Assembly (NCBI GenBank): GCA_018268675.1
Contig: JAFDWB010000062.1
Span: forward strand, 1-49,917
Direction: 5' to 3'
DNA length: 49,917 nucleotides
DNA from: Actinomycetota bacterium
GTDB lineage: Bacteria > Actinomycetota > Thermoleophilia > Solirubrobacterales > 70-9
Positions 32,844 to 47,523 of the stretch are shown one piece after another; the stretch's first letter is position 1; each line of letters begins with the position of its first letter. The translations under genes and the position numbers were made by a program. The notes under the pieces were generated by a model. That model saw only the letters and a list, made by a program, of their open reading frames with translations. It made no database searches and was not told the DNA's origin.

Positions 32844-33713
32844 GTGGCGGACGTCGCCGCCGCCAACGAGGAGTCGCGGGACGCCTGGAGCGGGCCCCTC
32901 TTCGAGCGCTTCGTGCGCTTCCGTCCCTACGTCGCCGAAGGGCTCGGGGCGCACGGCGAGGTGGCGATGGCGGTGCACCCACCGGCCGCGGGCGCGCGGG
33001 TCCTCGACATCGGCTGCGGCTTCGGCGACACCACGCGGCGCCTGGCGGCGCTGGTCGGGGGTGAGGGGGAGGTGGTCGGCGTCGACGTGTCGGAGCCGTT
33101 CGTCGAGCTGGCGCGCGAGGAGGCGGCGGCGATGGGCGTCGCCAACGTCGAGTACCGGCTCGGCGACGTCCAGGTGGCCGACCTCGGCGGCCCCTACGAC
33201 TACGCCTTCTCGCGGATGGGCGTGATGTTCTTCGCCAACCCGGTGCAGGCGCTCGGCAACATCCGCGAGGCGATGAGTCCGGGCGGCCGCGTCTGCTTCG
33301 TGGTCTGGCGGCGCAAGCTCGACAACTCCTGGGTCCACGAGGCCGAGCGGGTCGTCGAAGGCTACCTCGAGCACCCGGAGAAGTCCGAGGAGCCGACCTG
33401 CGGCCCGGGTCCCTTTTCGATGGCCGACGCCGATGTCGTCACCGAACAGCTCCGCATCGCCGGCTTCGAGCAGATCGAGCTGCGCCGCTGCGACCTGCCG
33501 CTCCGCATGGGCGCCGACCTCGACGGCGCCGTCGACCTGGTGATGGCGATCGGCCCCGCCGGCGAGGTCCTCCGCCTCTGGGGCGATCGCGCCGACGAGC
33601 TCCGCCCCCGCATCGCCGCCGATGTCCGCGCGGCCCTCGAGCAGTTCGAGACCCCCGAGGGAATCGAGGCCCCGTCCTCGACCTGGATCGTCTCGGCCGT
33701 CGCGCCGGGGTAG
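32844..33713 (+). CDS. SAM-dependent class I methyltransferase
   Basis: A 289-residue Rossmann-type methyltransferase. Motif I is VLDIGCGFGDTTRRLA (about 53-68), the acidic loop is VVGVDVSEPFVELARE, and motif IV is YDYAFSRMGVMFFANP. The post-motif region SPGGRVCFVVWRRKLDN is typical of UbiE/Coq5-like and small-molecule methyltransferases. It starts with GTG immediately after the SnoaL-like gene. The pairing suggests a small natural-product or lipid tailoring step, which I infer only from neighbourhood. Confidence 0.88.
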   Translation: MADVAAANEESRDAWSGPLFERFVRFRPYVAEGLGAHGEVAMAVHPPAAGARVLDIGCGFGDTTRRLAALVGGEGEVVGVDVSEPFVELAREEAAAMGVANVEYRLGDVQVADLGGPYDYAFSRMGVMFFANPVQALGNIREAMSPGGRVCFVVWRRKLDNSWVHEAERVVEGYLEHPEKSEEPTCGPGPFSMADADVVTEQLRIAGFEQIELRRCDLPLRMGADLDGAVDLVMAIGPAGEVLRLWGDRADELRPRIAADVRAALEQFETPEGIEAPSSTWIVSAVAPG

Positions 33714-33809: not shown

Positions 33810-35933
33810 TCAGCCGGCCCCGCCCCCCGAATCAACGCCCGGACGCTCCGCCCCCGCCAGCTCGTACGCCGCGCGGAGGCCTTCGGCGAAGGCGCGGACG
33901 GCATTGAGCTCGGTGGGGCTCTCGGCGCCGCCGACGACGCGGTGGGGGATCTGGAGGCGTTCCAGGAGGGGGCGGAGGTCGTCGCGGCGCTCTTGGCCTG
34001 CGGCGATCACGACTCGGTCGGCGGGGATCAATTCGAAGGTCCCGTCCTCCAGCTCGATCTCGACCCCGTGCGGGGTGATCTGACGGTAGGTGAGGTTGGT
34101 GCGCGTCTCGACCCCCGCGTGCTTCAGCGCGTCGATCCAAACCCAGCGCGTCGTGCGGCCGATCCCCGCGCCGATTCGGCCCGAGCGGCGCATCAGCGTT
34201 ACACGCGTCCCATTGGTCAAATCTTTGGTGTGGAGAGAAACTCGGTCTATACGCGAGTAAGTCCCCACGGGAGCCGGAGCGACTCGGTAGCGCTCGAAGA
34301 AATCGGCCGCATCGGCGGGTTCGTGCGTCAGTAGGTGCGCCAAGTCGACGCCGATGCCGCCGGCGCCGACGATCGCCACGGAGCGGGCGTCGCCGAGGCC
34401 GGCCTCGAACGCCTCGGCGTAGTCGACGACGTGGGGGAGGGACGAGCCGGGGATGTCGACCGCGCGAGGGTGGACGCCGGTGGCGAGGACGACGCCGGCG
34501 CAGTCGGCGATCACGTTGGCGTCGTGCTCGTGAACCTCATGGCCGAGGTGGATGCGCACGCCGAGGCGCGCGAGCTCGGATTCGAAGTAGGCGATCGTCG
34601 CCCCGTAGTCCTCCTTGCCGGGAACGAGCCGCGCCCAGCGGAACTGGCCTCCCAGCTCCTCGCGCGCCTCGTAGAGATGGACCGCGCCCCCGAGCGCCGC
34701 CAGCGCCCGCGCCGCCTCCATCCCCGCCGGCCCGCCGCCGATCACGGCGAATCTTTTCCTCTGTGCGGGAGACGCGTCGACCCCGAACTCGACCTCGTAT
34801 CCCGCCCGCGGATTCACGAGGCACGACACGCGCTCCCCCACGATCGAGCGATCGATGCACGCCTGATCGCAGGAGATGCACACGTTCACCGCTCCGGCTT
34901 CCCGTCCCTTCGCCACGATCCGTGGATCGGCCAAAAAGGGCCGCGACATCGAAACCAGATCGACGCCTCCCCCCGCGAGCACGACCTCCGCGTCTCGCAG
35001 CCGATTGATCCTGTTCCCCGCAATCACCGGCACCGCCGCCGTAGCCGCCGTAGTGGCGGCAGTGCCGGTGATCGAGGTCTTCAGTCCTTCCGCCCAACCC
35101 ACAAACGCCCCCGCCGGCACTGCCCCCTGCACCGTCGGCACCCCCGATTCGTGCCACCCGACCCCGACGTTCAACGCGTCGACCCCCGCCGCGACGAGCG
35201 CCGCCGCGAACGCCTCGACCTCCTCCCAAGGCCGTGCCTCGGGCATCAACTCCGCCCCCGTCATCCGGAAGAGGACCGGGAAGCCGTCCCCGACCGCCTC
35301 GCGCACCGCCGCCGCGATCTCGATCCCGAAGCGCATCCGCCGCTCCGCGTCGCCGCCCCAGGAGTCGTCGCGGAGGTTGGTCACCGGAGAGAGGAACTGG
35401 TCGACCAGGTACCCCTCGGAGCCCATCACCTCGACCGCGGCGAAGCCGAGCTCCCGCGCCAGCGCCGCCCCCGCCGCGAACTCCGCGACCACCTCCCACA
35501 CCTCGTCCTCGCCGAGCGCCCGCGGCTCGACCCGCGACACGCGGCTCGCCACCGCCGAGGGCGCGACGACCTCCCCGGGCGAGTCGCCGAGCGCGTAGCG
35601 CCCGGCGTGGAAGAGCTGCAGGGCGATCCGCGCCTCGGTCCCCTCCGTCGCCCCCGCGACCTCGCTGAGCGCCCGTCGCGCGCCCTCCGTGCCGAGCACC
35701 CCGTAGCTCGCGTCCGCCGCCGCGTCCGCCGACACCGCCCAGCCCCCGGTCACGATCAGCCCCGCGCCGCCGAGCGCGCGCTCGCGGTAGAACGCCGCCA
35801 GCCGCCTGCCGGCGTCGGCCGCCCCCTCGACCCCGAGGTGCATCGACCCCATCACGATCCGGTGCGGGAGCCGCAGGCCGCCGATCGCGATCGGCGCGAA
35901 GATGTGGTCGAGCGCGGCGCCCGGCTCAGGCAT
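33810..35933 (-). CDS. 2,4-dienoyl-CoA reductase, FadH type (FMN/FAD/4Fe-4S)
   Basis: A 707-residue, two-part flavoprotein. The N-terminal Old-Yellow-Enzyme barrel has Y175 in [14 protein letters not shown] and H261 in [10 protein letters not shown], equivalent to the catalytic pair of E. coli FadH. The iron-sulfur cysteines C352, C355, C359 and C371 follow in [15 protein letters not shown] and SCLVNPRA. The FAD/NADPH half starts at [10 protein letters not shown] (399-408). A low-complexity insert ([15 protein letters not shown], about 287-301) is absent from E. coli FadH. It reduces conjugated dienoyl-CoA with NADPH. Its ATG overlaps the SDR stop by 8 bases. In this operon it probably reduces a cyclohexadiene-carbonyl-CoA intermediate. 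Confidence 0.88.
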
Positions 35934-36741
35934 CCGGCAGCCGCAGCGGCCCGGTCGCGTCGTCGAAGAACGGCGGCGCGACGATCGTCAGCCCGCCGTC
36001 GACCACGATCGTCTGCCCGGTGATGTACTCGGAGCGCGGTTCGAGCAGGAACTCGACCGTGTCGGCGACCTCCTCGACCGTCCCCGGCCGCCCTTTGGGC
36101 ACCTTCGGCAGCACCTTCTCCTCCATGTCGGGCATCCCCTCGACGCCGTAGAAGTAGGCCAGCGAGTCGGAGTCGATCAGCCCGCCGTTAACCCCGTTGA
36201 CGTTGATCCCGAGCGGCGCGAACTCGACCGCCATGTAGCGCACGTAGGCCTCCAGCGCGGCCTTCGCGGCGCCGAGGTTGGCGTAGGTCGGGTAGGCGCG
36301 GATCGAGCCGTAGCTCGACAGCGTGACGATCCGCCCGCCGTCCGTCATCAGGTCCACCGCCCGCTGCGCCCCGAGCACGAAGGAGCGGATGTTCATCGCG
36401 TAGGAGCGGTCGAGGTGGTGCAGTTTCAGGTCGCGGATCAGCTTGAAGCTCGACGCCGCCGCGTTGTCGACGAAGTAGTCGAGCCGGCCGAACTCCTCGC
36501 CCGCGGCCTCGAAGAGGCGGTCGATGTCCTCCGGCGACTCCATGTCGGCCTGCACCGCGATCGCCCGCCCGCCGCGCTCCTCGACCCCGCGCACGACCTC
36601 CGCCGCGAGCTCCTCGTTCACCTTGTAGTTGACCACCGCCGAGCCGCCCTTCGACGCCAGCGACAGCGCCAGCGTGCGGCCGATCCCGCGCGAGCTCCCG
36701 GTGATCAGCGCCACCTTCCCGGCGGCGAACCCCTCAGCCAT
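35926..36741 (-). CDS. FabL-like enoyl reductase (divergent SDR)
   Basis: A 271-residue SDR with TGSSRGIG at 14-21. The active site is Y153-x6-K160 (YANLGAAK), the spacing of enoyl reductases rather than the Y-x3-K of ketoreductases. [17 protein letters not shown] and [13 protein letters not shown] closely resemble Bacillus FabL (ENR III). The gene starts 3 bases after the acyl-CoA dehydrogenase stop. Reduction of a 2-enoyl thioester is therefore the likely chemistry. In the operon context it could do the job of ChcA, which reduces 1-cyclohexenylcarbonyl-CoA. This is inference from family and neighbours. Confidence 0.85.
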
Positions 36742-36744
36742 CGA

Positions 36745-37947
36745 TCAACCCAGCTCCCGCTCGGCGATCGAGGCGTGGACGGGGGCGAAGACCTCGCGGG
36801 CGATGATCGTCTTCTGGATCTCGTTGGTCCCCTCCTCGAAGCGCTGCGCGCGCGCGTCGCGGTACACCCGCTCGATCGGCGAGGAGGCCCAGAAGCCGAT
36901 CCCCCCGTGCGCCTGGAGCGCCTTGTCGGTGACCCGGGTGAGCATGTCGACCGCGGTCAGCTTCGACATCGAGGAGAGCACAGCGGCGTCCGCCGCGCCC
37001 GCCTCCCAGCGCCGCGCCGCGTGCAGGGCAAGCTGGCGGGCCGCTTCGATGTCGGCGGCGTTCTCGGCGAGCGCGAAGGAGATCGCCTGGCGCTGGGAGA
37101 GCGACTTGCCGAAGGTGACGCGCCGCGCCGCGTGCTCCGCCGCCAGCTCCTGCGCCCGTCGCGCCAGCCCGACGCAGGTCGTCGCGACGGCGATCCGGCT
37201 CGGCGTCAGGAAGCCGCCGAAGGCGACCTGCAGACCCTTGCCCTCCTCGCCGAGCGTGTCCGACACCGGCACCGGGGCGCGGTCGAAGACCAGGTGAGCG
37301 TGGTCGGTCCCGCGCACGCCCATCGACTCGCCCATGTCCTCGACCCGCACGTTCGGCGTGTCGCGGTCGACCAGCAGCGCCACCGTCCCTTCGGCGCCGG
37401 TCGTCCCCGCCAACCGCGCGAAGAGGAGCCAGCGGTCGCAGCTCACCCCGAAGGTGATCAGGTGCTTCTCGCCGGTCAGGTAGTAGGTGTCGCCCTCGCG
37501 CTCCACCTCGCAGCGGAGGTCGGCGCCGGTGCCGGCGGTCGGCTCGGTCAGGGTGAAGGCGACGGTGAGGTCGCCGGTCACCGCGGGCATCACATAATCG
37601 CGGCGCTGCTCCTCGGTCGCGAACTGGTCGACCGAGCGCCACACCCCGTTGGAGACGTGGACGATCATCCGCAGCGAGGCGTGCGACATCGAGAAGAGCT
37701 CGAGCAGCTCCAGGTAGCGCGAGAACGGGATCCCGCGGCCGCCGTACTCGACCGGCCCGGCCAGCGAGAGGTAGCCGCGCCCCTTCAGCTCGTCCCGCAG
37801 CTCCGGCGGCACCGCGCGCTCGGCCTCGATCCGCCGCGTCCACTCCTCCCCCTCCCCGGCGACGTACGCGGCGATCTCCGCTTTCAGCTCCTCGAAGCCC
37901 GCCTCGTCGAAGGTCTCGGGCAGGGGAATGGCGGCTTGCGGCGTCAT
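36745..37947 (-). CDS. Acyl-CoA dehydrogenase family protein
   Basis: A 400-residue FAD protein with the three-domain acyl-CoA dehydrogenase fold. FTLTEPTAGTGADL (middle-domain FAD contact), RVTFGKSLSQRQAISFALAE, QAHGGIGFWASSPIERVYRD and FEEGTNEIQK are all present. E372 occupies the usual catalytic-base position before Gly-Thr. The ATG overlaps the stop of the fusion gene by one base (TGATG), so expression is coupled. In the proposed cyclohexanecarboxyl-CoA route it would add or remove a ring double bond. Fatty-acid oxidation is the plain alternative, but no thiolase or hydratase lies beside it. Confidence 0.9.
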   Translation of the reverse strand: MTPQAAIPLPETFDEAGFEELKAEIAAYVAGEGEEWTRRIEAERAVPPELRDELKGRGYLSLAGPVEYGGRGIPFSRYLELLELFSMSHASLRMIVHVSNGVWRSVDQFATEEQRRDYVMPAVTGDLTVAFTLTEPTAGTGADLRCEVEREGDTYYLTGEKHLITFGVSCDRWLLFARLAGTTGAEGTVALLVDRDTPNVRVEDMGESMGVRGTDHAHLVFDRAPVPVSDTLGEEGKGLQVAFGGFLTPSRIAVATTCVGLARRAQELAAEHAARRVTFGKSLSQRQAISFALAENAADIEAARQLALHAARRWEAGAADAAVLSSMSKLTAVDMLTRVTDKALQAHGGIGFWASSPIERVYRDARAQRFEEGTNEIQKTIIAREVFAPVHASIAERELG

Positions 37948-40900
37948 CAGACGGGCTCCTTGCTGGTCGGTTGCGGCTCCTCCGGCCGGAGCCCTTTGGC
38001 GCGGTCGCGCAGGACGAACTTCTGGATCTTGCCACTCGGCGTGCGGGGCATCGCGGCGACCGTCTCGACCCGCTCGGGCCAGTAATGCTTCGCCACCCCG
38101 TGCGCGTCCAGGTGCTCGCGGACCTCGGCGAGGCTGAAGTCGGCGCTCCAGTCGGGGTCGCGGACGACGAAGGCGCAGGCGCGCTCGCCGAGGCGCGGGT
38201 CGGGCATCGCCACGATCGCCACCTCGGCCACCGCCGGGTGCGCGTGGAGCAGCTGCTCGATCTCGGCGACCGGCACCTTCTCGCCGCCGCGGTTGACGAT
38301 GTCCTTGACCCGGCCGGTGAGGCGTAGGTAGCCGTCGGCGTCGATCGTCGCCAGGTCGCCGGTGCGGTACCAGCCGTCCGCGGTCATCGCCGCCGCGGTC
38401 AGGTCGGGACGGTCGAGGTACCCCTCGAAGAGGCAGCGGCTCGTCACCTGGAAATTCCCCTCCTCGTCGGGGCCGAGGACCTGGTCGGCGTCGTCCACGA
38501 TCCGGATCCGGGTGCCGGCGAGCGCCCGCCCGTCGGTGCCCCAGACCTTCTCCGGGTCGTCGCCGGGGGCGGCGAGGGCGCCGAGACAGGACTCGGTCGA
38601 GCCCCAGGCGCCGCAGACCGCGGCGGCGAGGATGCGGGTCGCGCGCTCGGCGAGCGCCCGCGGCACCGCGGCGCCGGTGACGACGAAGATCCGCAGCGCC
38701 GGCGGCGCCTCCTCCTCGCCCGCCTCGACCACCCGCACGAGGTCGGCGAGGAACGGCGTCGCCGCCTGCACGAAGCTGCCGTCCCACTCGCGCAGGGCGC
38801 GGGCGCCGCGGCGCGGGTCCCAGACGTCCTGGATCACCTGGGTCGAGCCGAGCGCGAAGGCCAGCCACATCCCGTACAGCAGGCCGGTCTGGTGGGCGAG
38901 CGGGGTGGGGATGAAGATCGTGTCGGCGCGGCCGAGTCCGAGGTGCTCGACCTCCATCATCGCCGCCCGGGTCAGCGCGTCGTAGCGATGCAGCACGCCT
39001 TTAGGCTCACCGGTCGAGCCGGAGGTGAAGAAGAGCTGGGAGAGTGCCGTCGGCGCCGGTTTGCGGGCGGCGATCGCGGCGCGGTCGGGGTCTTGGGCGG
39101 CGAGCGCGGCGGCAAAGTCGTGCCAGCGGGCCGCGCCGGCCTCGGGGAGGGCCGGGGCGCCGGCGGCGCCGACCACGAGCACGTGCTCGACCGGGAGCGG
39201 GGCGTCGCCGTTCGGCGCGGCAAGCATCGCGGCGACCTCCTCGGCGTGCCGCCGCCCGCGGAACTCGTCGGCGACGACCAGCACCCGCGCCCCGGAGCGG
39301 CGCAGGGCGAAGCCGATCTCGCGCTCGCGGAAGATCGGCATCAGGGCGCAGCAGATCGCCCCGACCTTCATGCAGGCGAGGGTCAGGATCACGAACTCGC
39401 CCCAGTTCGGCAGCTGGTAGGCGACCGTCTCGCCCGGCTCGACCCCGAGCTCCAGCAGCAGCGACGCCGCCCGGTCGGCCTCGCGGTCGAGCTCCTCCCA
39501 GGTCCACACCCGGGTGCCGCCCGCCCGCACGTCGACGACCGCGTCCTCGCCCGGCCGCTCGCGCGCCCAGCGCCCGACCCAGTCGACGATCGGGATCTCC
39601 GCCGCCTGGTCGATCGCGATCGACTCGACCGCCCCCGCCGGGGCGCCCTCGCCGGAGCGGGCGCGGTCGTCCTCGATCGAGAGGTCGATGCCGATCGCCG
39701 CCATGTCCTCGAGGAAGCCGGGGTAGGAGATGCGGAACGCGTTCGGGTAGGTCAGCGAGCTCTCGCCGCGGGCGCGCGAGGCCGCCACGGTGAGCGACAT
39801 GTGGACCCGGTGGTCGTTGAAGCTGGAGAGGGGGGAGCCGGTCAGGTCGCCCTCGATCCCGCGCACCACCAGCTCGTCGCCCTGCTCTTCGACGTCGCCG
39901 CCCATGCGGTTCAGCTGCAACATCGAGACGACCCGGTCGGACTCCTTCAGACGCACGTGGGCGACGTTGTGGAAGCGCGTCTCGCCGCTCGCGAACTGAC
40001 CCATCGTCGAGAGCACCGGCAGCATGTCGGGCATCGGCCGGCAGTCGATCTCGACCCCACGCAGCCGCACCCCGTCGTGGCGGACCCGCACCCCGCCCGC
40101 GGCGCGGTCGAGCTCCATCGGCAGGCCCATCTCGGCGACCACGTCGAGGAAGTGGGCCTCGGGGTGGTCGACCTTGCCGCCGTCGATCTCGGCGACGCCG
40201 CGGAAGAGCACGTCCGACGGGTGGATCGAGGTGGCGGCGAGGCCGAAGGCGAGCGAGCCGATGTCGGGAGGGAGGGTGATCTCGGCCGGATGGGCGGTCT
40301 GCCCGGGTTCGATCTCGAAGCGCCGCCAGTCGTCGGCGACCGCGACCTCGAGCCCGAACTCGCGCATCATGTTCACGGTCAGTTCGACGTAGGGGCGCTC
40401 GTTCAGGGTGCCCTCGACCTCGATCGTCGTCGGCCCGCTCGCGAACGGCGCGACCATGATCAGGCCCGAGATCCACTGGCTGAGCGTGCCCGCGATCGAC
40501 ACCCGGCCGCCGTGCGGGCGCCGCGGCCGGACCGTGATCGGGGGGGTCGAGTTGGCGGAGGAGAGCTCGACGCCCATGTCGGTGAGGGCCTCGAGCAGCG
40601 GTCCGATCGGGCGGCGCTGGAAGTACTTCTGGCCGGTGATCGTGACCGGCGCGTCGGCCAGCGAGGCAAGCCCGACCATGAAGTAGAGCGTGGTGCCGGA
40701 GGAGCCGACCGAGACGGTGTCGCGCAGCGGCCGGTAGGGGAGGCCGCCGCCGACGAGGAAGCCGTCGGCGGTCGTCTCGATCCGGGTGCCGAGGCCGGTC
40801 AGCACCTCGATCGTCGATTGGACGTGTTTGGCGGCGACGCCGCCCTTGATGCGGCTCTCGCCCTCGGCCAGCGACGCCAGCATCAGCGCCCGGTGGGCGT

Positions 40901-40970
40901 GGTACTTGGACGCGGGGACCGAGATGTCGCCTTCCAGGCGTCCCGTCGTTTCCCGAACGTAGAGATGCAC
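37947..40970 (-). CDS. EPSP-synthase-like domain fused to AMP-forming acyl-CoA ligase
   Basis: A 1007-residue two-enzyme protein. Residues 1-430 form an AroA-type double barrel. K22, R27, R120, Q165, D315, E343, R346 and R388 are kept, but the canonical Ser after K22 is Tyr23, the NAGTxxR loop reads SSGTTLY (Tyr96 for Arg), and the late Lys is Ile414. Residues about 456-1000 are an acyl-CoA synthetase: TSGSTGEPKG (649-658), GAWGSTES (787-794), YRTGDL (868-873), and Lys981 in PSGKIQK. From memory, ansatrienin clusters have separate AnsJ and AnsK and the phoslactomycin cluster a fused PlmJK, used to make cyclohexanecarboxyl-CoA from shikimate. The short leader has no clear ribosome site. Confidence 0.9.
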   Translation of the reverse strand: MHLYVRETTGRLEGDISVPASKYHAHRALMLASLAEGESRIKGGVAAKHVQSTIEVLTGLGTRIETTADGFLVGGGLPYRPLRDTVSVGSSGTTLYFMVGLASLADAPVTITGQKYFQRRPIGPLLEALTDMGVELSSANSTPPITVRPRRPHGGRVSIAGTLSQWISGLIMVAPFASGPTTIEVEGTLNERPYVELTVNMMREFGLEVAVADDWRRFEIEPGQTAHPAEITLPPDIGSLAFGLAATSIHPSDVLFRGVAEIDGGKVDHPEAHFLDVVAEMGLPMELDRAAGGVRVRHDGVRLRGVEIDCRPMPDMLPVLSTMGQFASGETRFHNVAHVRLKESDRVVSMLQLNRMGGDVEEQGDELVVRGIEGDLTGSPLSSFNDHRVHMSLTVAASRARGESSLTYPNAFRISYPGFLEDMAAIGIDLSIEDDRARSGEGAPAGAVESIAIDQAAEIPIVDWVGRWARERPGEDAVVDVRAGGTRVWTWEELDREADRAASLLLELGVEPGETVAYQLPNWGEFVILTLACMKVGAICCALMPIFREREIGFALRRSGARVLVVADEFRGRRHAEEVAAMLAAPNGDAPLPVEHVLVVGAAGAPALPEAGAARWHDFAAALAAQDPDRAAIAARKPAPTALSQLFFTSGSTGEPKGVLHRYDALTRAAMMEVEHLGLGRADTIFIPTPLAHQTGLLYGMWLAFALGSTQVIQDVWDPRRGARALREWDGSFVQAATPFLADLVRVVEAGEEEAPPALRIFVVTGAAVPRALAERATRILAAAVCGAWGSTESCLGALAAPGDDPEKVWGTDGRALAGTRIRIVDDADQVLGPDEEGNFQVTSRCLFEGYLDRPDLTAAAMTADGWYRTGDLATIDADGYLRLTGRVKDIVNRGGEKVPVAEIEQLLHAHPAVAEVAIVAMPDPRLGERACAFVVRDPDWSADFSLAEVREHLDAHGVAKHYWPERVETVAAMPRTPSGKIQKFVLRDRAKGLRPEEPQPTSKEPV

Positions 40971-41118
40971 TGCCGGGAACGTATATGTAGAGCCAGTCGG
41001 CAGGCGGTCTGCGTACCCCGATCAGGCGGGTGGCGCGAGGGCCGGGTCCGCGCGAATCGGGATAATGGGGTTGCATGTGCGCCCGGTGCCGTCCGCAGTG
41101 ATCCCAGGAGGAGACCCA
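40971..41118. promoter_or_regulatory. Divergent promoter region between the fusion operon and the ketosynthase
   Basis: In 148 bases, GATAAT (41061-41066) is a plus-strand -10 candidate for the ketosynthase. AGGAGGAG (41106-41113) is its ribosome site. On the minus strand TACATATAC (about 40982-40990) is a -10 candidate some 12-20 bases from the fusion-gene ATG. A shared region suggests joint control of starter supply and condensation. Confidence 0.5.
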
Positions 41119-42351
41119 GTGTCGTACCAGGCACCTGTCGTCACCGGGCTCGGGGCGCTCACGCCGGTCGGGCTCGACGCGCCCTCGACCTGGGAGGCAC
41201 TCGTGGCCGGCCGGTCGGGGATCGGGCCGATCACCCAGTTCGACGCCTCCGGGCTGGCGACGCGGATCGCCGGTGAGGTGAGGGGGTTCGATCCGGTGGA
41301 GACGCTCGGCGCCAAGCGGGCGCACCGCACGGCGCGCTTCTCGCAGCTGGCGATCGCGGCGGCGCGCGAGGCGGTCGCCGACGCGGGGCTCGACGTGGCG
41401 GCGGTGGCCGACCGGGTCGGGGTCGCGATCGGCAGCGCGGTGGCGGGGACGCCGGAGACCGAGCGCAACCTGCGGGCGTTGGTCGACGAGGGGCCGCGCG
41501 CCGTCAGCCCCTTCTACGTCGCCTCGACGATCCTCAACATGGCCTCCTGCGAGGTGGCGATCGACCTCGGCGCCCACGGGCCGGTGACCGCGAGCGCGCT
41601 GGCCTGCGCGACCGGCACCTACGCGCTGCTGGAGGCGCGCCGCCTGATCGTCGCGGGGGAGGCCGACGTGGTGATCGCGGGCGGGGCCGACGCGGGGATC
41701 AACGAGGCGGTGATCGCCGGCCTCTCCAACATGGGCCCGCTGTCGGAGCGCAACGACGACCCGGCGGGCGCGAGCCGCCCCTTCGACTCCGACCGCGACG
41801 GCTTCGTGTTCGGCGAGGGCGCGGTCGTCCTCGTCCTCGAGTCGGCCGAGCACGCGGCGGCCCGCGGCGCCACCACCTACGGCTCGGTGGCGGGCGGTGC
41901 CCTCACCTCGGACGCCTTCCACATGAGCGCCCCGGAGCCGAGCGGCGATTATGCCGCGGGCGCCATCCGCCTGGCCCTCGAGCGCTCCGGCATCGCCCCC
42001 GAGGAGCTCGGCTACATCTGTGCCCACGGCACCGCCACCCGGGCCAACGACACCTCGGAGAGCCGCGCCATCCGCGAGGCCCTGGGCGACGCCGCCGACC
42101 ACATCCCGGTCTCCTCCCCCAAGTCCATGGTCGGCCACCTGATCGCCGCCGCCGGCGCCCTCGCCGGGATGGTCTGCCTCCTCGCCATCCGCGACGGCGT
42201 CGTCCCTCCGACCATCAACCTCACCGACCCCGACCCCGACTGCGACCTCGACCACGTCGCCCTCACCGCCCGCCAGGCCACCGTCGACGCGGCGATCGCC
42301 AACGCCTTCGGCTTCGGCGGCCAGAATTGCGTCGTCGGCTTCCGGCGTTAG
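41119..42351 (+). CDS. Beta-ketoacyl-ACP synthase (FabF/KAS II type)
   Basis: A 410-residue thiolase-fold condensing enzyme. The catalytic triad is C163 (ALACATGTYA), H303 (CAHGTATRAND) and H340, with the supporting K335 (SPKSMVGH). GFGGQN closes the active site near the C-terminus. GTG 41119 is chosen because AGGAGGAG lies 5 bases upstream. It is divergent from the cyclohexanecarboxyl-CoA-type operon, which suggests elongation of chains built on an unusual starter. Initiation itself would normally need a KAS III, which I do not see here. Its end overlaps the convergent XRE gene by 4 bases. Confidence 0.93.
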   Translation: MSYQAPVVTGLGALTPVGLDAPSTWEALVAGRSGIGPITQFDASGLATRIAGEVRGFDPVETLGAKRAHRTARFSQLAIAAAREAVADAGLDVAAVADRVGVAIGSAVAGTPETERNLRALVDEGPRAVSPFYVASTILNMASCEVAIDLGAHGPVTASALACATGTYALLEARRLIVAGEADVVIAGGADAGINEAVIAGLSNMGPLSERNDDPAGASRPFDSDRDGFVFGEGAVVLVLESAEHAAARGATTYGSVAGGALTSDAFHMSAPEPSGDYAAGAIRLALERSGIAPEELGYICAHGTATRANDTSESRAIREALGDAADHIPVSSPKSMVGHLIAAAGALAGMVCLLAIRDGVVPPTINLTDPDPDCDLDHVALTARQATVDAAIANAFGFGGQNCVVGFRR

Positions 42352-43986: not shown

Positions 43987-44199
43987 ATGGATGTCCGCGG
44001 CCGTTTCGCGATGAATGTCGCGGCGGCGCGGCGAGAGGCCGGCATGAGCCGGGAGGAGCTGGCGCAGCGCGCGGGCCTGGACCGCTCGGAGATCGACTCG
44101 ATCGAGGCCGGGAGAGGGGCGCCCGATCTGGACACGCTGGTGCGGCTCTCCGGCGCACTCGGTGTCTCGGCCGACGTCTTGGTCGAGGGGATCTCCTAA
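43987..44199 (+). CDS. Small XRE-family DNA-binding protein
   Basis: A 70-residue single helix-turn-helix: NVAAARREAGMSREELAQRA, LDRSEIDSIEAGRGAPDLDT and LVRLSGALGVSADVLVEG. ATG 43987 is chosen because the frame upstream overlaps the HEPN gene without sense. It lies 22 bases after the HEPN stop and ends overlapping the convergent GNAT-like gene by 4 bases. It likely regulates the HEPN operon, perhaps together with the XRE protein at 42348. Confidence 0.82.
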   Translation: MDVRGRFAMNVAAARREAGMSREELAQRAGLDRSEIDSIEAGRGAPDLDTLVRLSGALGVSADVLVEGIS

Positions 44200-45326
44200 G
44201 AATCTGTCGCGAGCGCGCGTTCGTAGACGCGGTACTTCTTAACCACGCGGCCGTTCATGGCTTCGAGGCCGGAGTTCATCGCGTGGTTGGTCTCGAGGAT
44301 GAAGCCGGCCTCGCCGTGTTTCAGGCGTGAGCGGGCGGCGGCTTCGAAGTGTTCGACGTAGAGGAGGGCGGCGACGCCGGTGTGCTGCCACTCGGGCTTG
44401 ACGCCGAGGAAGCCGACGCGGAGGCGATCGGTGGTGCGGTTGCGCATCAGGAAGTCGAACCAGCCGGTGGGGAGGAGGCGGCCGTTCATGCGTTTCTGGA
44501 GCTGGTTGGCGTCCATCACGGTGATCGCCATCGCGATCGTCTCCCCCTCGCGTTCGGCGACCATGAACCATTCGGGCGAGTAGACGAGCTGGAGGTCGAG
44601 CGCGTAGGCGTCCAGGTCCTCCTTCGAGTAGGGGACGAAGCCCCAGTTCTCCGACCAGGCCGAGTTGTAGACGTCGGCAAACTTGTCGAGGTCCTTGCGC
44701 AGCGAGCGGCGGGTCATTTTGCGCACCTCGACCCCGTACTTCTCGCGGCAGCGCTTGGCGAGTTTCTCGATGATCGGCTTCATCGAGGCGCGGTCGTCGA
44801 TCGAGAGGTCCCAGGAGAGGAGGTCCATCGCCTTCACCAGGCCCGCCTCCTCGATCCGCCGCTGGTAGTAGGGCGGGTGCCAGTTCTGGCGGATCAGCGG
44901 TTCGAGGTCGAAGCCCTCGATCAGGATCCCGCCCTCCTCGTTCAGGCTGAAGTCCATCGGCCCGAGCATCTGGTCGCAGCCGCGCGCCCGCAGCCACGCC
45001 TCCGCGGTCCCGAGGAGCGCGGTGAGGATCTCCGGGTCGTCCTCGAACTCGAGGAAGCCGAACATCCCGGTCCGGGTGCCGTGGAACTGGTTGTAGGCGA
45101 AATCGATCTGGGCGGTGATCCGCCCGACCACGCGCCCCTCGCGCCGGGCCAGGAAGTACTCCGCTTCGCCGTGCTTGAAGTAGGCGTTCAGGCGCCGGCT
45201 GAGGAAGATGCGCCGCTCGAGTTTCAGCGGCGTCACCCACGGCGTGCCCGCGTGGAGGCGGAAGGGCAGGTCGATGAACTCGCCGATCTGGCGGCGACCC
45301 TCGACGGTGGTGATCTCGACCCCCAC
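44196..45326 (-). CDS. GNAT-fold acyltransferase-like protein
   Basis: 376 residues. The N-terminal half includes EYFLARREGRVVGRITAQID and GMFGFLEFEDDPEILTALL, the beta-bulge and helix of a GNAT domain. The later RVGFLGVKPEWQHTGVAALL matches the acetyl-CoA pyrophosphate-binding loop of a second GNAT domain. LGPMDFSLNEEGGILIEGF is typical of an uncharacterised actinobacterial and proteobacterial family. The GTG at 45326 (GVEITTVEGRR) is chosen because longer frames run into the hairpin at 45351. Substrate unknown. Confidence 0.72.
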   Translation of the reverse strand: MGVEITTVEGRRQIGEFIDLPFRLHAGTPWVTPLKLERRIFLSRRLNAYFKHGEAEYFLARREGRVVGRITAQIDFAYNQFHGTRTGMFGFLEFEDDPEILTALLGTAEAWLRARGCDQMLGPMDFSLNEEGGILIEGFDLEPLIRQNWHPPYYQRRIEEAGLVKAMDLLSWDLSIDDRASMKPIIEKLAKRCREKYGVEVRKMTRRSLRKDLDKFADVYNSAWSENWGFVPYSKEDLDAYALDLQLVYSPEWFMVAEREGETIAMAITVMDANQLQKRMNGRLLPTGWFDFLMRNRTTDRLRVGFLGVKPEWQHTGVAALLYVEHFEAAARSRLKHGEAGFILETNHAMNSGLEAMNGRVVKKYRVYERALATDS

Positions 45327-45350
45327 GGTCAGGAAACCTACTGCCCCGGT

Positions 45351-45393
45351 GAGTTCGCAGTTTGCCGCGCTATCCGCGGGTTTCTGCGAACTC
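45351..45393. repeat. Dispersed hairpin family 1, copy E
   Basis: Outer arms GAGTTCGCAG/CTGCGAACTC and inner arms CCGCG/CGCGG pair, separated by short internal loops. It lies between the GNAT-like gene and the alcohol dehydrogenase pseudogene, in the same architecture as copy C. Confidence 0.78.
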
Positions 45394-45407
45394 ATCGCGA
45401 CGGGCGC

Positions 45408-45831: not shown

Positions 45832-47523
45832 ATGGAGTCCATGCGCCCGCTCCTCCTCGCCCCGCTCGCCGCCTTGGCGGCGCTGCTCCTCTTCGGGGCG
45901 ACCGAGGCCGGGGCGGGCGACCCGACCTGCCACGGGAAACCGGCGACGATCGTCTCCAATGCGCCGACGATCATCGGCACCAAGGCCCCCGACGTGATCG
46001 TCGCCGGCCCCGGGAACAACGTCATCCACGGGGAAGGCGGCAACGACCTGATCTGCGCCGGGGCCGGCAACGACACCATCTACGGCGAACGCGGCAACGA
46101 CACGATCTACGGCGAAGAAGGCGAAGACACGATCTACGGGGAACGCGGCTCCGACACCCTCGACGGCGGCCCCGGCAACGACCGGATCTTCGGCGGCCGC
46201 GGCTCCGACCAGATCGAAGGTGGGCCGGGCTCCGACCTGCTCGAGGGCGAACAGGGCAACGACACCGTCAACGGCGGCGCCGGTGACCACGACATCGTCG
46301 AGGGCAACCAGGGCGACGACACGCTGAACGGCGGTCCCGGCAACGAAGACGTGATCATCGGCGGCCCCGGCAACGACCAGATCGACGGCGGCCCCGGCGA
46401 ACACGACATCGCCGACTACGCGGGCGCCGGCGGCGCGGTCACCATCAACCTGCAGACGCAGACCGTCACCGGGGCCGAGAACGAGCACCTGGAAGGGATC
46501 GAGGACGCGATCGGCGGTTCCGGGAACGACACCCTGATCGGCTCCTCGGAAACCGCGAACCGGCTCGACGGCGGACCCGGCAACGACCACCTCGAAGCGG
46601 TCGGCCCCGGCGACGCCGCCTTCGGCGGTCCGGGCGGCGACCAGTGCACCGGCGGCTTCGCCGCAGAAACCTCCTGCGGGCCGGCGGCGGGCACCAACGG
46701 CCTCGCGGTCGAAATCTACGAATCGATCGACGGCCAGTCGACGCTGATCCTCACCGGCAGCCCCGGTCCCGACGTCGGCACCGTCGACTACTCGGCCGGT
46801 CAGTGGATCATCACCGGCTCCGACGTCACCCTTGGCGACCCGACCAACCCCGACTGCACCGGCGGCGGCACGGTGGTCTGCACCGGCAAGGTCGACGCGA
46901 TCGAAGCGAACATGGGGGCGGGCGACGACGAAATGACGATCGGCGAATCCGTCCCGGCCTCGATCTCGGCGACGCTCGAAGGCGGCACCGGCTCCGACAA
47001 GCTCGTCGGCGGCCCCGGCAACGACGTCCTCTACGCGGGCCCCGACCACGTCCCCGACATCCTCGAAGGCGGCCCCGGCAACGACGTCCTCTACGGGGTC
47101 AACATCTTCCACCCGAAAAAAGACTCGGGCGCGGCGACGATGAACGGCGGCCCCGGCTCAGACCTGATGATCGGGGGCCAGCCCTGCGACGGCGACACCT
47201 TCAACGGCGGCCCGGGCGCCAACGACAGCGCCTCCTTCGCCCGCATCCACAACTCGGCCGGCGTCGCGGTCGAAGCAACGATCGGCGGCTCCGTCACGAC
47301 CCCCGGCGTCCCCAACTGCACCCCCGGCCACATCACCGCCAGCACGGAGAAGATCGAGGGCTCGCCCGGCAACGACATCCTCACCGGCGACAACGGGCCG
47401 AACACCCTGCTCGGCCGCGGCGGCAACGACAAGCTGAACGGGATGGGCGGCGTCGACGACTGCATCGGCGGCGCCGGCCACGACACCGCCACCAACTGCG
47501 AGCAGGAAGCCTCGATCCCCTGA
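45832..47523 (+). CDS. Secreted RTX-type calcium-binding repeat protein
   Basis: 563 residues. A signal peptide (about 5-27, LLLAPLAALAALLLFG) is followed by tandem GGxGxDxUx nonapeptides. These are dense between residues 60 and 200 (GGNDLICAG, RGNDTIYG, PGNDRIFGG) and return at about 375-420 and 515-545. Such repeats fold into calcium-loaded parallel beta-rolls outside the cell. A spacer (about 280-370) with two Cys pairs has no recognised domain, and no catalytic domain is visible. Start choices are ATG 45832 and ATG 45841. The underlying DNA is a visible near-repeat of GGCGGCCCCGGCAACGAC. Glutamate is mostly GAA. Confidence 0.9.
   Translation: MESMRPLLLAPLAALAALLLFGATEAGAGDPTCHGKPATIVSNAPTIIGTKAPDVIVAGPGNNVIHGEGGNDLICAGAGNDTIYGERGNDTIYGEEGEDTIYGERGSDTLDGGPGNDRIFGGRGSDQIEGGPGSDLLEGEQGNDTVNGGAGDHDIVEGNQGDDTLNGGPGNEDVIIGGPGNDQIDGGPGEHDIADYAGAGGAVTINLQTQTVTGAENEHLEGIEDAIGGSGNDTLIGSSETANRLDGGPGNDHLEAVGPGDAAFGGPGGDQCTGGFAAETSCGPAAGTNGLAVEIYESIDGQSTLILTGSPGPDVGTVDYSAGQWIITGSDVTLGDPTNPDCTGGGTVVCTGKVDAIEANMGAGDDEMTIGESVPASISATLEGGTGSDKLVGGPGNDVLYAGPDHVPDILEGGPGNDVLYGVNIFHPKKDSGAATMNGGPGSDLMIGGQPCDGDTFNGGPGANDSASFARIHNSAGVAVEATIGGSVTTPGVPNCTPGHITASTEKIEGSPGNDILTGDNGPNTLLGRGGNDKLNGMGGVDDCIGGAGHDTATNCEQEASIP

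What the first reader, a model, noticed from the sequence alone, without database searches (positions are those of the whole stretch)
39650..40970. EPSP-synthase domain that has lost canonical substrate residues
Aligned by hand to E. coli AroA, the domain keeps K22, R120, Q165, D315, E343, R346 and R388. It replaces the Ser after the first Lys with Tyr23, the Arg of the NAGTxxR loop with Tyr96, and the late Lys with Ile414. These positions touch the phosphate groups in real EPSP synthase. The pattern points to an unphosphorylated shikimate-like substrate and a different reaction, such as an elimination.
Basis: partly seen in the sequence, partly recalled or inferred. Interest (0 to 1): 0.7.

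Follow-up and report, generated by a model that had tools for sequence, protein, structure and literature searches.

The report
Shikimate-to-cyclohexane gene cassette, AroA look-alike
What looks like a broken copy of the herbicide-target enzyme AroA is most likely the first enzyme of a known pathway that turns shikimate into cyclohexanecarboxyl-CoA, found here in uncultured soil actinobacteria, where it probably supplies the starter for cyclohexane-tipped membrane fatty acids.

Summary
Window 39651-40970(-) is an EPSP-synthase-fold domain fused to an acyl-CoA ligase (1007 aa), with Tyr23, Tyr96 and Ile414 where E. coli AroA has Ser23, Arg100 and Lys411. A canonical aroA and a murA lie elsewhere in the genome. 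The residue reading needs correction. Ile414 is not diagnostic (AroAs of the same order have Val there). The diagnostic changes, 28/28 against 13/13 AroA, are S23Y, D49H, A95S/C, R100Y and S169L; Glu replaces Ser197 in 28/28. S169 and S197 are the 3-phosphate side of the pocket (recalled), so an unphosphorylated shikimate-like substrate fits. The domain heads a tight operon (fusion, acyl-CoA dehydrogenase, Yx6K enoyl reductase, FadH/OYE flavoenzyme). The same order recurs in other actinobacteria, several Streptomyces copies lying next to polyketide synthases. Its gene content matches, from memory, the ansJKLM/chcA and plmJK cassettes that make cyclohexanecarboxyl-CoA from shikimate. Here it sits beside a distinct FabF that co-occurs with the cassette, and the genome shows no PKS dehydratase, so omega-cyclohexyl fatty acids are the likeliest product. 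This is a new member of a known kind. The reaction of the EPSPS-like domain (probably 1,4-dehydration of free shikimate) remains unproven and is now testable.

The parts
37947..40970 (-). Fusion gene (GTG start, 1007 aa): EPSPS-like domain + acyl-CoA ligase, PlmJK/AnsJ-AnsK-like
   Evidence: same fusion in L023-L034 and most Streptomyces hits L066-L075, L077
39651..40970 (-). EPSPS-fold domain (aa 1-440), proposed shikimate 1,4-dehydratase; clade-specific Y23, H49, S91, Y96, L163, E191
   Evidence: PF00275; AF2 pLDDT 92.2, Z 46.1 to 1G6S over 415 residues, rmsd 2.4; residue table
38001..39572 (-). Acyl-CoA ligase domain (aa 467-990); best NCBIfam model is cyclohexanecarboxylate-CoA ligase TIGR03208, below its cut-off
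36745..37947 (-). Acyl-CoA dehydrogenase (400 aa), AnsL-like; ATG overlaps the fusion's stop (TGATG)
35926..36741 (-). SDR enoyl reductase, ChcA-like; best model FabL, active site Y-x6-K as in enoyl reductases
33810..35933 (-). FadH/OYE-type Fe-S flavoenzyme (707 aa), AnsM-like; overlaps the SDR gene by 8 bp; absent from some relatives' loci
41065..42351 (+). Divergent FabF-type beta-ketoacyl-ACP synthase II of a cassette-associated FabF subclade
40398..40400 (-). Codon of Glu191 (E. coli Ser197): acidic residue on the S3P 3-phosphate side, candidate general acid for loss of the 3-OH
   Evidence: E in 28 of 28 CHC-type, never in 13 AroA; role inferred

Best explanation
The locus is a cyclohexanecarboxyl-CoA (CHC-CoA) biosynthesis cassette of the AnsJKLM/ChcA, PlmJK type. 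The EPSPS-like domain takes free shikimate, not shikimate 3-phosphate. It removes the C3 hydroxyl and a C6 proton (1,4-elimination) to give a dihydroxycyclohexadiene carboxylate. The fused ligase activates this as a CoA thioester. The acyl-CoA dehydrogenase, the enoyl reductase and the FadH/OYE flavoenzyme then carry out the dehydrations and reductions that lead to CHC-CoA. In this bacterium CHC-CoA most likely primes fatty-acid synthesis, giving omega-cyclohexyl fatty acids, with the neighbouring FabF as a dedicated elongating synthase. Shown: the fusion, its residue signature, conservation of the cassette, PKS linkage in some Streptomyces, FabF co-occurrence, separate AroA and MurA. Inferred: each catalytic step, the product and its destination. 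Glu191 as general acid in the elimination is inference only. The confidence given is for the cassette identity; the exact reaction of the EPSPS-like domain is less certain (see the PEP rival and the novel case).
For: Operon of four tightly packed genes. The ligase's best NCBIfam model is cyclohexanecarboxylate-CoA ligase, and the dehydrogenase's list includes cyclohexane-carbonyl-CoA dehydrogenases, all below cut-off. The SDR has a Y-x6-K enoyl-reductase motif, kept in 25 of 26 loci. The gene order recurs in Sinosporangium, partly in Arthrobacter/Paenarthrobacter, and in Streptomyces, where 11 of 393 genomes have the domain. Five Streptomyces loci lie beside modular PKS genes and one beside a KS pair, as expected if CHC-CoA is a PKS starter (phoslactomycin PKS uses it, PMC9730843; asukamycin and omega-cyclohexyl fatty acids, PMC4147253; gene cluster from shikimate, PMC6693128 and PMC10295569 citing doi 10.1038/79479). 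CHC-type EPSPS domains form one clade (100/99.9) apart from AroA and MurA. The S3P carboxylate ligand R27 (role recalled) is kept in 28/28 while 3-phosphate-side residues become Leu and Glu. The FabF subclade occurs in the same 7 of 61 relatives as the fusion, and 4 of the 6 FabF-positive Streptomyces have the fusion (hypergeometric p 5e-6). No PKS dehydratase model matches in the own genome.
Against: No sequence of AnsJ, PlmJK or ChcA could be fetched, so equivalence rests on domain order and recollection. Most PEP-site residues are kept (K22, R124, E341, R344, H385, R386), which a PEP-free dehydratase would not obviously need. Direct gamma-deprotonation of a free acid is chemically hard. The recalled pathway also needs an enoyl-CoA isomerase (ChcB), which I did not look for. 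Omega-cyclohexyl fatty acids in this order are not documented in anything I read. In the 7 relatives FabF adjoins the fusion, so that co-occurrence is partly plain linkage, and cassette FabFs are not a clean clade. The absent-PKS test used one Pfam model on a draft genome.
Confidence: 0.83

Rival explanations
1. Same cassette, but the EPSPS-like domain uses PEP: it attaches an enolpyruvyl (ketal) group to a shikimate hydroxyl to make a leaving group, then eliminates it.
For: K22, R124, E341, R344, H385, R386 and D313 are invariant in all 28 CHC-type domains; the AF2 model aligns best with closed, ligand-bound EPSPS structures.
Against: R100Y and K411I alter the PEP/intermediate side, N94S and D49H also change it (site roles recalled). 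Such an activation has no precedent that I know of.
Confidence: 0.2
2. An extra, ordinary EPSP synthase (AroA) kept for aromatic amino acid synthesis or inhibitor tolerance.
For: TIGR01356 aroA scores 306.7, above its 287.25 cut-off; TM-score 0.88 to AroA structures.
Against: A canonical AroA is present in the genome. Invariant S23Y, D49H, R100Y, S169L, S197E. Fusion and operon with CoA-ester enzymes.
Confidence: 0.03
3. A catabolic module that degrades hydroaromatic acids (shikimate, quinate or cyclohexane carboxylate) through CoA esters.
For: Ligase and dehydrogenase resemble cyclohexanecarboxylate degradation enzymes in NCBIfam.
Against: Linked to PKS genes in several Streptomyces and to a dedicated FabF elsewhere; carries an enoyl reductase, not hydratase or thiolase genes, in the operon.
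Confidence: 0.07
4. CHC-CoA cassette whose product in this organism is a polyketide or other secondary metabolite, not fatty acids.
For: Such use is suggested by Streptomyces loci L086, L087 and others beside PKS genes.
Against: No PF14765 PKS dehydratase match in the own genome; no PKS domain hit in the two Solirubrobacterales relatives' flanks checked or in the window; FabF beside the cassette.
Confidence: 0.15

Closest known systems
Cyclohexanecarboxyl-CoA cassette ansJKLM + chcA of ansatrienin (Streptomyces collinus; Cropp, Wilson and Reynolds 2000, doi 10.1038/79479, cited in PMC10295569 and PMC6693128)
   Same: EPSPS-like, acyl-CoA ligase, acyl-CoA dehydrogenase, flavoenzyme and enoyl reductase encoded together (names and roles recalled, paper not read)
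   Different: Here the first two are fused and the cassette adjoins a FabF, not a PKS; sequences not compared directly
plmJK/plmL/plmM/chcA of phoslactomycin
   Same: Fused EPSPS-like/ligase protein (recalled); starter CHC-CoA confirmed in PMC9730843
   Different: Polyketide context; no FabF in the modular-PKS-linked Streptomyces cassettes seen here
Omega-cyclohexyl fatty acid biosynthesis (Alicyclobacillus, PMC10562698; asukamycin producer, PMC4147253)
   Same: Proposed end product and shikimate origin of the ring (origin recalled)
   Different: Genes of Alicyclobacillus could not be compared; lineage here is Solirubrobacterales, with no lipid data
EPSP synthase AroA (EC 2.5.1.19)
   Same: Fold, and most catalytic residues of the PEP side
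   Different: 27-29% identity; S23Y, D49H, A95S/C, R100Y, S169L, S197E; separate clade

Membership tests
CHC-CoA biosynthesis cassette (AnsJKLM/ChcA, PlmJK type) | EPSPS-like protein distinct from the cell's AroA | tested here: met
CHC-CoA biosynthesis cassette (AnsJKLM/ChcA, PlmJK type) | Linked acyl-CoA ligase, acyl-CoA dehydrogenase, SDR enoyl reductase and FadH/OYE flavoenzyme | tested here: met
CHC-CoA biosynthesis cassette (AnsJKLM/ChcA, PlmJK type) | Sequence orthology to characterised AnsJ, PlmJK, ChcA | not tested
   No such record was in the collections reached; unnamed PKS-linked Streptomyces homologues at about 60-65% identity are indirect support
CHC-CoA biosynthesis cassette (AnsJKLM/ChcA, PlmJK type) | Makes CHC-CoA from shikimate | not testable with these tools
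   Needs enzymology or feeding
CHC-CoA biosynthesis cassette (AnsJKLM/ChcA, PlmJK type) | Delta3,Delta2-enoyl-CoA isomerase ChcB in the genome (recalled) | not tested
   Not searched; recalled to lie outside the cluster
EPSP synthase AroA | EPSPS fold and PF00275 | tested here: met
EPSP synthase AroA | Residues S23, S169, D49 and R100, invariant in the AroAs compared | tested here: not met
   13/13 AroA against 0/28 CHC-type
EPSP synthase AroA | Forms EPSP from S3P and PEP | not testable with these tools
   Assay needed
MurA | Groups with MurA | tested here: not met
   22% identity to the MurA-like L042; separate clade; true MurA at G000:C56

The most novel reading that the evidence does not exclude
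The EPSPS fold has been converted into a PEP-independent, phosphate-free shikimate 1,4-dehydratase. A glutamate occupies the 3-phosphate site (E191) and a His replaces Asp49, so it does without a flavin an elimination like the one chorismate synthase does with one, and it feeds its product directly to a fused CoA ligase. In uncultured Solirubrobacterales this makes omega-cyclohexyl membrane lipids with a dedicated FabF.
Probability: 0.45. Interest if true: 0.6.

Novelty: new member of a known kind. Interest (0 to 1): 0.42.

Why it matters
The first step of cyclohexanecarboxyl-CoA biosynthesis, how an EPSP-synthase relative starts to strip shikimate of its hydroxyls, has to my knowledge not been worked out biochemically. 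The residue signature found here gives concrete mutants and a clean way to tell these enzymes from AroA, which the NCBIfam aroA model does not do. The cassette-plus-FabF arrangement predicts omega-cyclohexyl lipids in a lineage where I found no report of them, which would matter for lipid biomarkers and annotation.

Tried and rejected
Direct retrieval of AnsJ, PlmJK, asukamycin or Alicyclobacillus genes failed. The plasmid collection gave only AroA-like hits of about 34% identity or less among the best rows, the single genome-contig scan reached only close relatives, and phylum sampling cannot reach Bacillota. The asukamycin and phoslactomycin cluster papers tried are not held; Cropp 2000 is known only through papers citing it; the look-up used a DOI other than Cropp's, so whether that paper is held was not tested. 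Searches for a paper describing an EPSPS-like shikimate dehydratase found none. Papers searched for exact S3P contact residues did not list them for the phosphate, so the roles of S23, S169 and S197 rest on recollection of 1G6S. K411I as a marker was rejected. The idea that cassette FabFs are strictly one clade is not shown (p-AU 0.21 does not reject it).

Full report
Observation. Residues 8-423 match PF00275 and residues 467-990 an AMP-binding acyl-CoA ligase. Two of its three 'lost' residues hold up as markers: S23Y and R100Y are seen in 28 of 28 relatives and in none of 13 AroAs. The third does not: position 411 is Val in the AroAs of this order, including the window genome's own. The AroAs compared include E. 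coli's and those found in the same genomes as the CHC-type domains.

Not the housekeeping enzyme. The genome has a separate AroA next to a prephenate-dehydrogenase-like ORF (G000:C16) and a MurA (G000:C56). All 12 genomes checked that carry the odd domain also hold at least one further PF00275 gene, mostly an AroA and a MurA. In a maximum-likelihood tree the odd domains form one group (support 100/99.9) apart from AroA and MurA. The NCBIfam aroA model nevertheless scores the domain above its cut-off (306.7 against 287.25), so automatic annotation would call it AroA. The AlphaFold2 model is confident (pLDDT 92.2) and superposes on S3P-bound EPSPS (1G6S: Z 46.1, 415 residues, rmsd 2.4).

Context. 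The fusion's stop overlaps the start of an acyl-CoA dehydrogenase gene (TGATG). An SDR follows after three bases, and then a FadH/OYE-type Fe-S flavoenzyme whose start overlaps the SDR by 8 bp. The SDR carries Y-x6-K, typical of enoyl reductases rather than ketoreductases (family fact recalled), in 25 of the 26 loci in which it was found, and its best model is FabL. A FabF lies divergently, its annotated start 94 bp away.

Relatives. Named contigs with the fusion and cassette are Solirubrobacterales MAGs (L023-L030), Sinosporangium album (L031), Arthrobacter koreensis (L032), Paenarthrobacter sp. (L033) and Arthrobacter terrae (L034). In L032 no SDR, and in L033 and L034 no flavoenzyme, was found in the stretch held. 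In an unnamed family (f20) the EPSPS-like protein and ligase are separate genes. Among 393 Streptomyces (genus inferred from chaplins), 11 have the domain, one of them interrupted by a stop. The fusion-dehydrogenase-SDR order is kept in all ten genomes with an intact copy, most with the flavoenzyme. Five Streptomyces loci (G800, G807, G804, G782 and the second copy in G809) lie within about 30 kb of modular PKS genes, and one (G631) beside a KS pair. Others (G809:C18, G460) have the FabF instead and no PKS in about 30 kb on either side; G630 and G738 have neither.

What it is. From memory, the gene set and the fusion match the cyclohexanecarboxyl-CoA genes of ansatrienin (ansJKLM, chcA) and phoslactomycin (plmJK, plmL, plmM, chcA). 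Held papers confirm that a gene cluster for this CoA ester made from shikimate was moved into S. avermitilis (PMC6693128, PMC10295569, citing doi 10.1038/79479), that the phoslactomycin PKS starts with it (PMC9730843), and that it also primes omega-cyclohexyl fatty acids (PMC4147253). I could not fetch those reference genes, so family identity is very likely but untested by direct sequence comparison.

Likely end use here. The cassette FabF belongs to a distinct FabF group (100/100) that also holds FabFs found elsewhere in the Conexibacter and A. terrae genomes that carry the cassette. It occurs in exactly the 7 of 61 relatives that have the fusion, although there it adjoins the fusion. In Streptomyces it occurs in 6 of 393, 4 of them among the 11 with the fusion domain (p 5e-6). 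The own genome has no match to the PKS dehydratase family PF14765. Together this favours omega-cyclohexyl fatty acids over a polyketide.

Mechanism. Inferred: because R27 (carboxylate ligand in AroA, recalled) is kept in all 28 while S169 and S197 on the 3-phosphate side become Leu and Glu, the domain most likely binds free shikimate before CoA activation. A 1,4-elimination of the 3-OH with a C6 proton, with E191 as a possible acid, fits the pathway. The conserved PEP-side residues leave a PEP-assisted route open (confidence 0.2). H49, Y23 and Y96 line the changed pocket, but their roles are unknown.

Verdict. A correct and careful observation of a known enzyme type in a new lineage, with a sharper residue signature and a plausible lipid role. 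The chemistry of the first step remains the open, testable question.

Noticed in passing
41065-42351 (+): FabF of a distinct subclade that co-occurs with the CHC cassette across lineages; two Streptomyces (G524, G697) have this FabF without the EPSPS-like fusion, for reasons unknown.
   Followed up: partly
37947-40970, NCBIfam TIGR01356: The aroA equivalog model accepts this divergent domain above its curated cut-off, so databases probably hold it as AroA.
   Followed up: yes
33810-35933 and loci L033, L034, L083, L086, L090-L093: The FadH/OYE flavoenzyme was not found in several related cassettes within the stretch held, so it may be dispensable or replaced by a gene elsewhere.
   Followed up: partly
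L076, L089 (Streptomyces G540): A CHC-type EPSPS domain with an in-frame TGA and no cassette around it: apparently a decaying copy.
   Followed up: no
L066 and L077 (Streptomyces G809): One genome holds two CHC-type fusions, one with full cassette plus FabF and one beside a modular PKS.
   Followed up: partly
44196-45395 (-): A 399-aa protein with only weak GNAT similarity, about 82-91% identical in relatives and kept near the cassette.
   Followed up: no
32844-33713 (+): A SAM methyltransferase convergent to the operon, kept in the same place in L025-L027.
   Followed up: no
45832-47523 (+): A calcium-binding-repeat (RTX-like) protein just beyond the cassette region.
   Followed up: no
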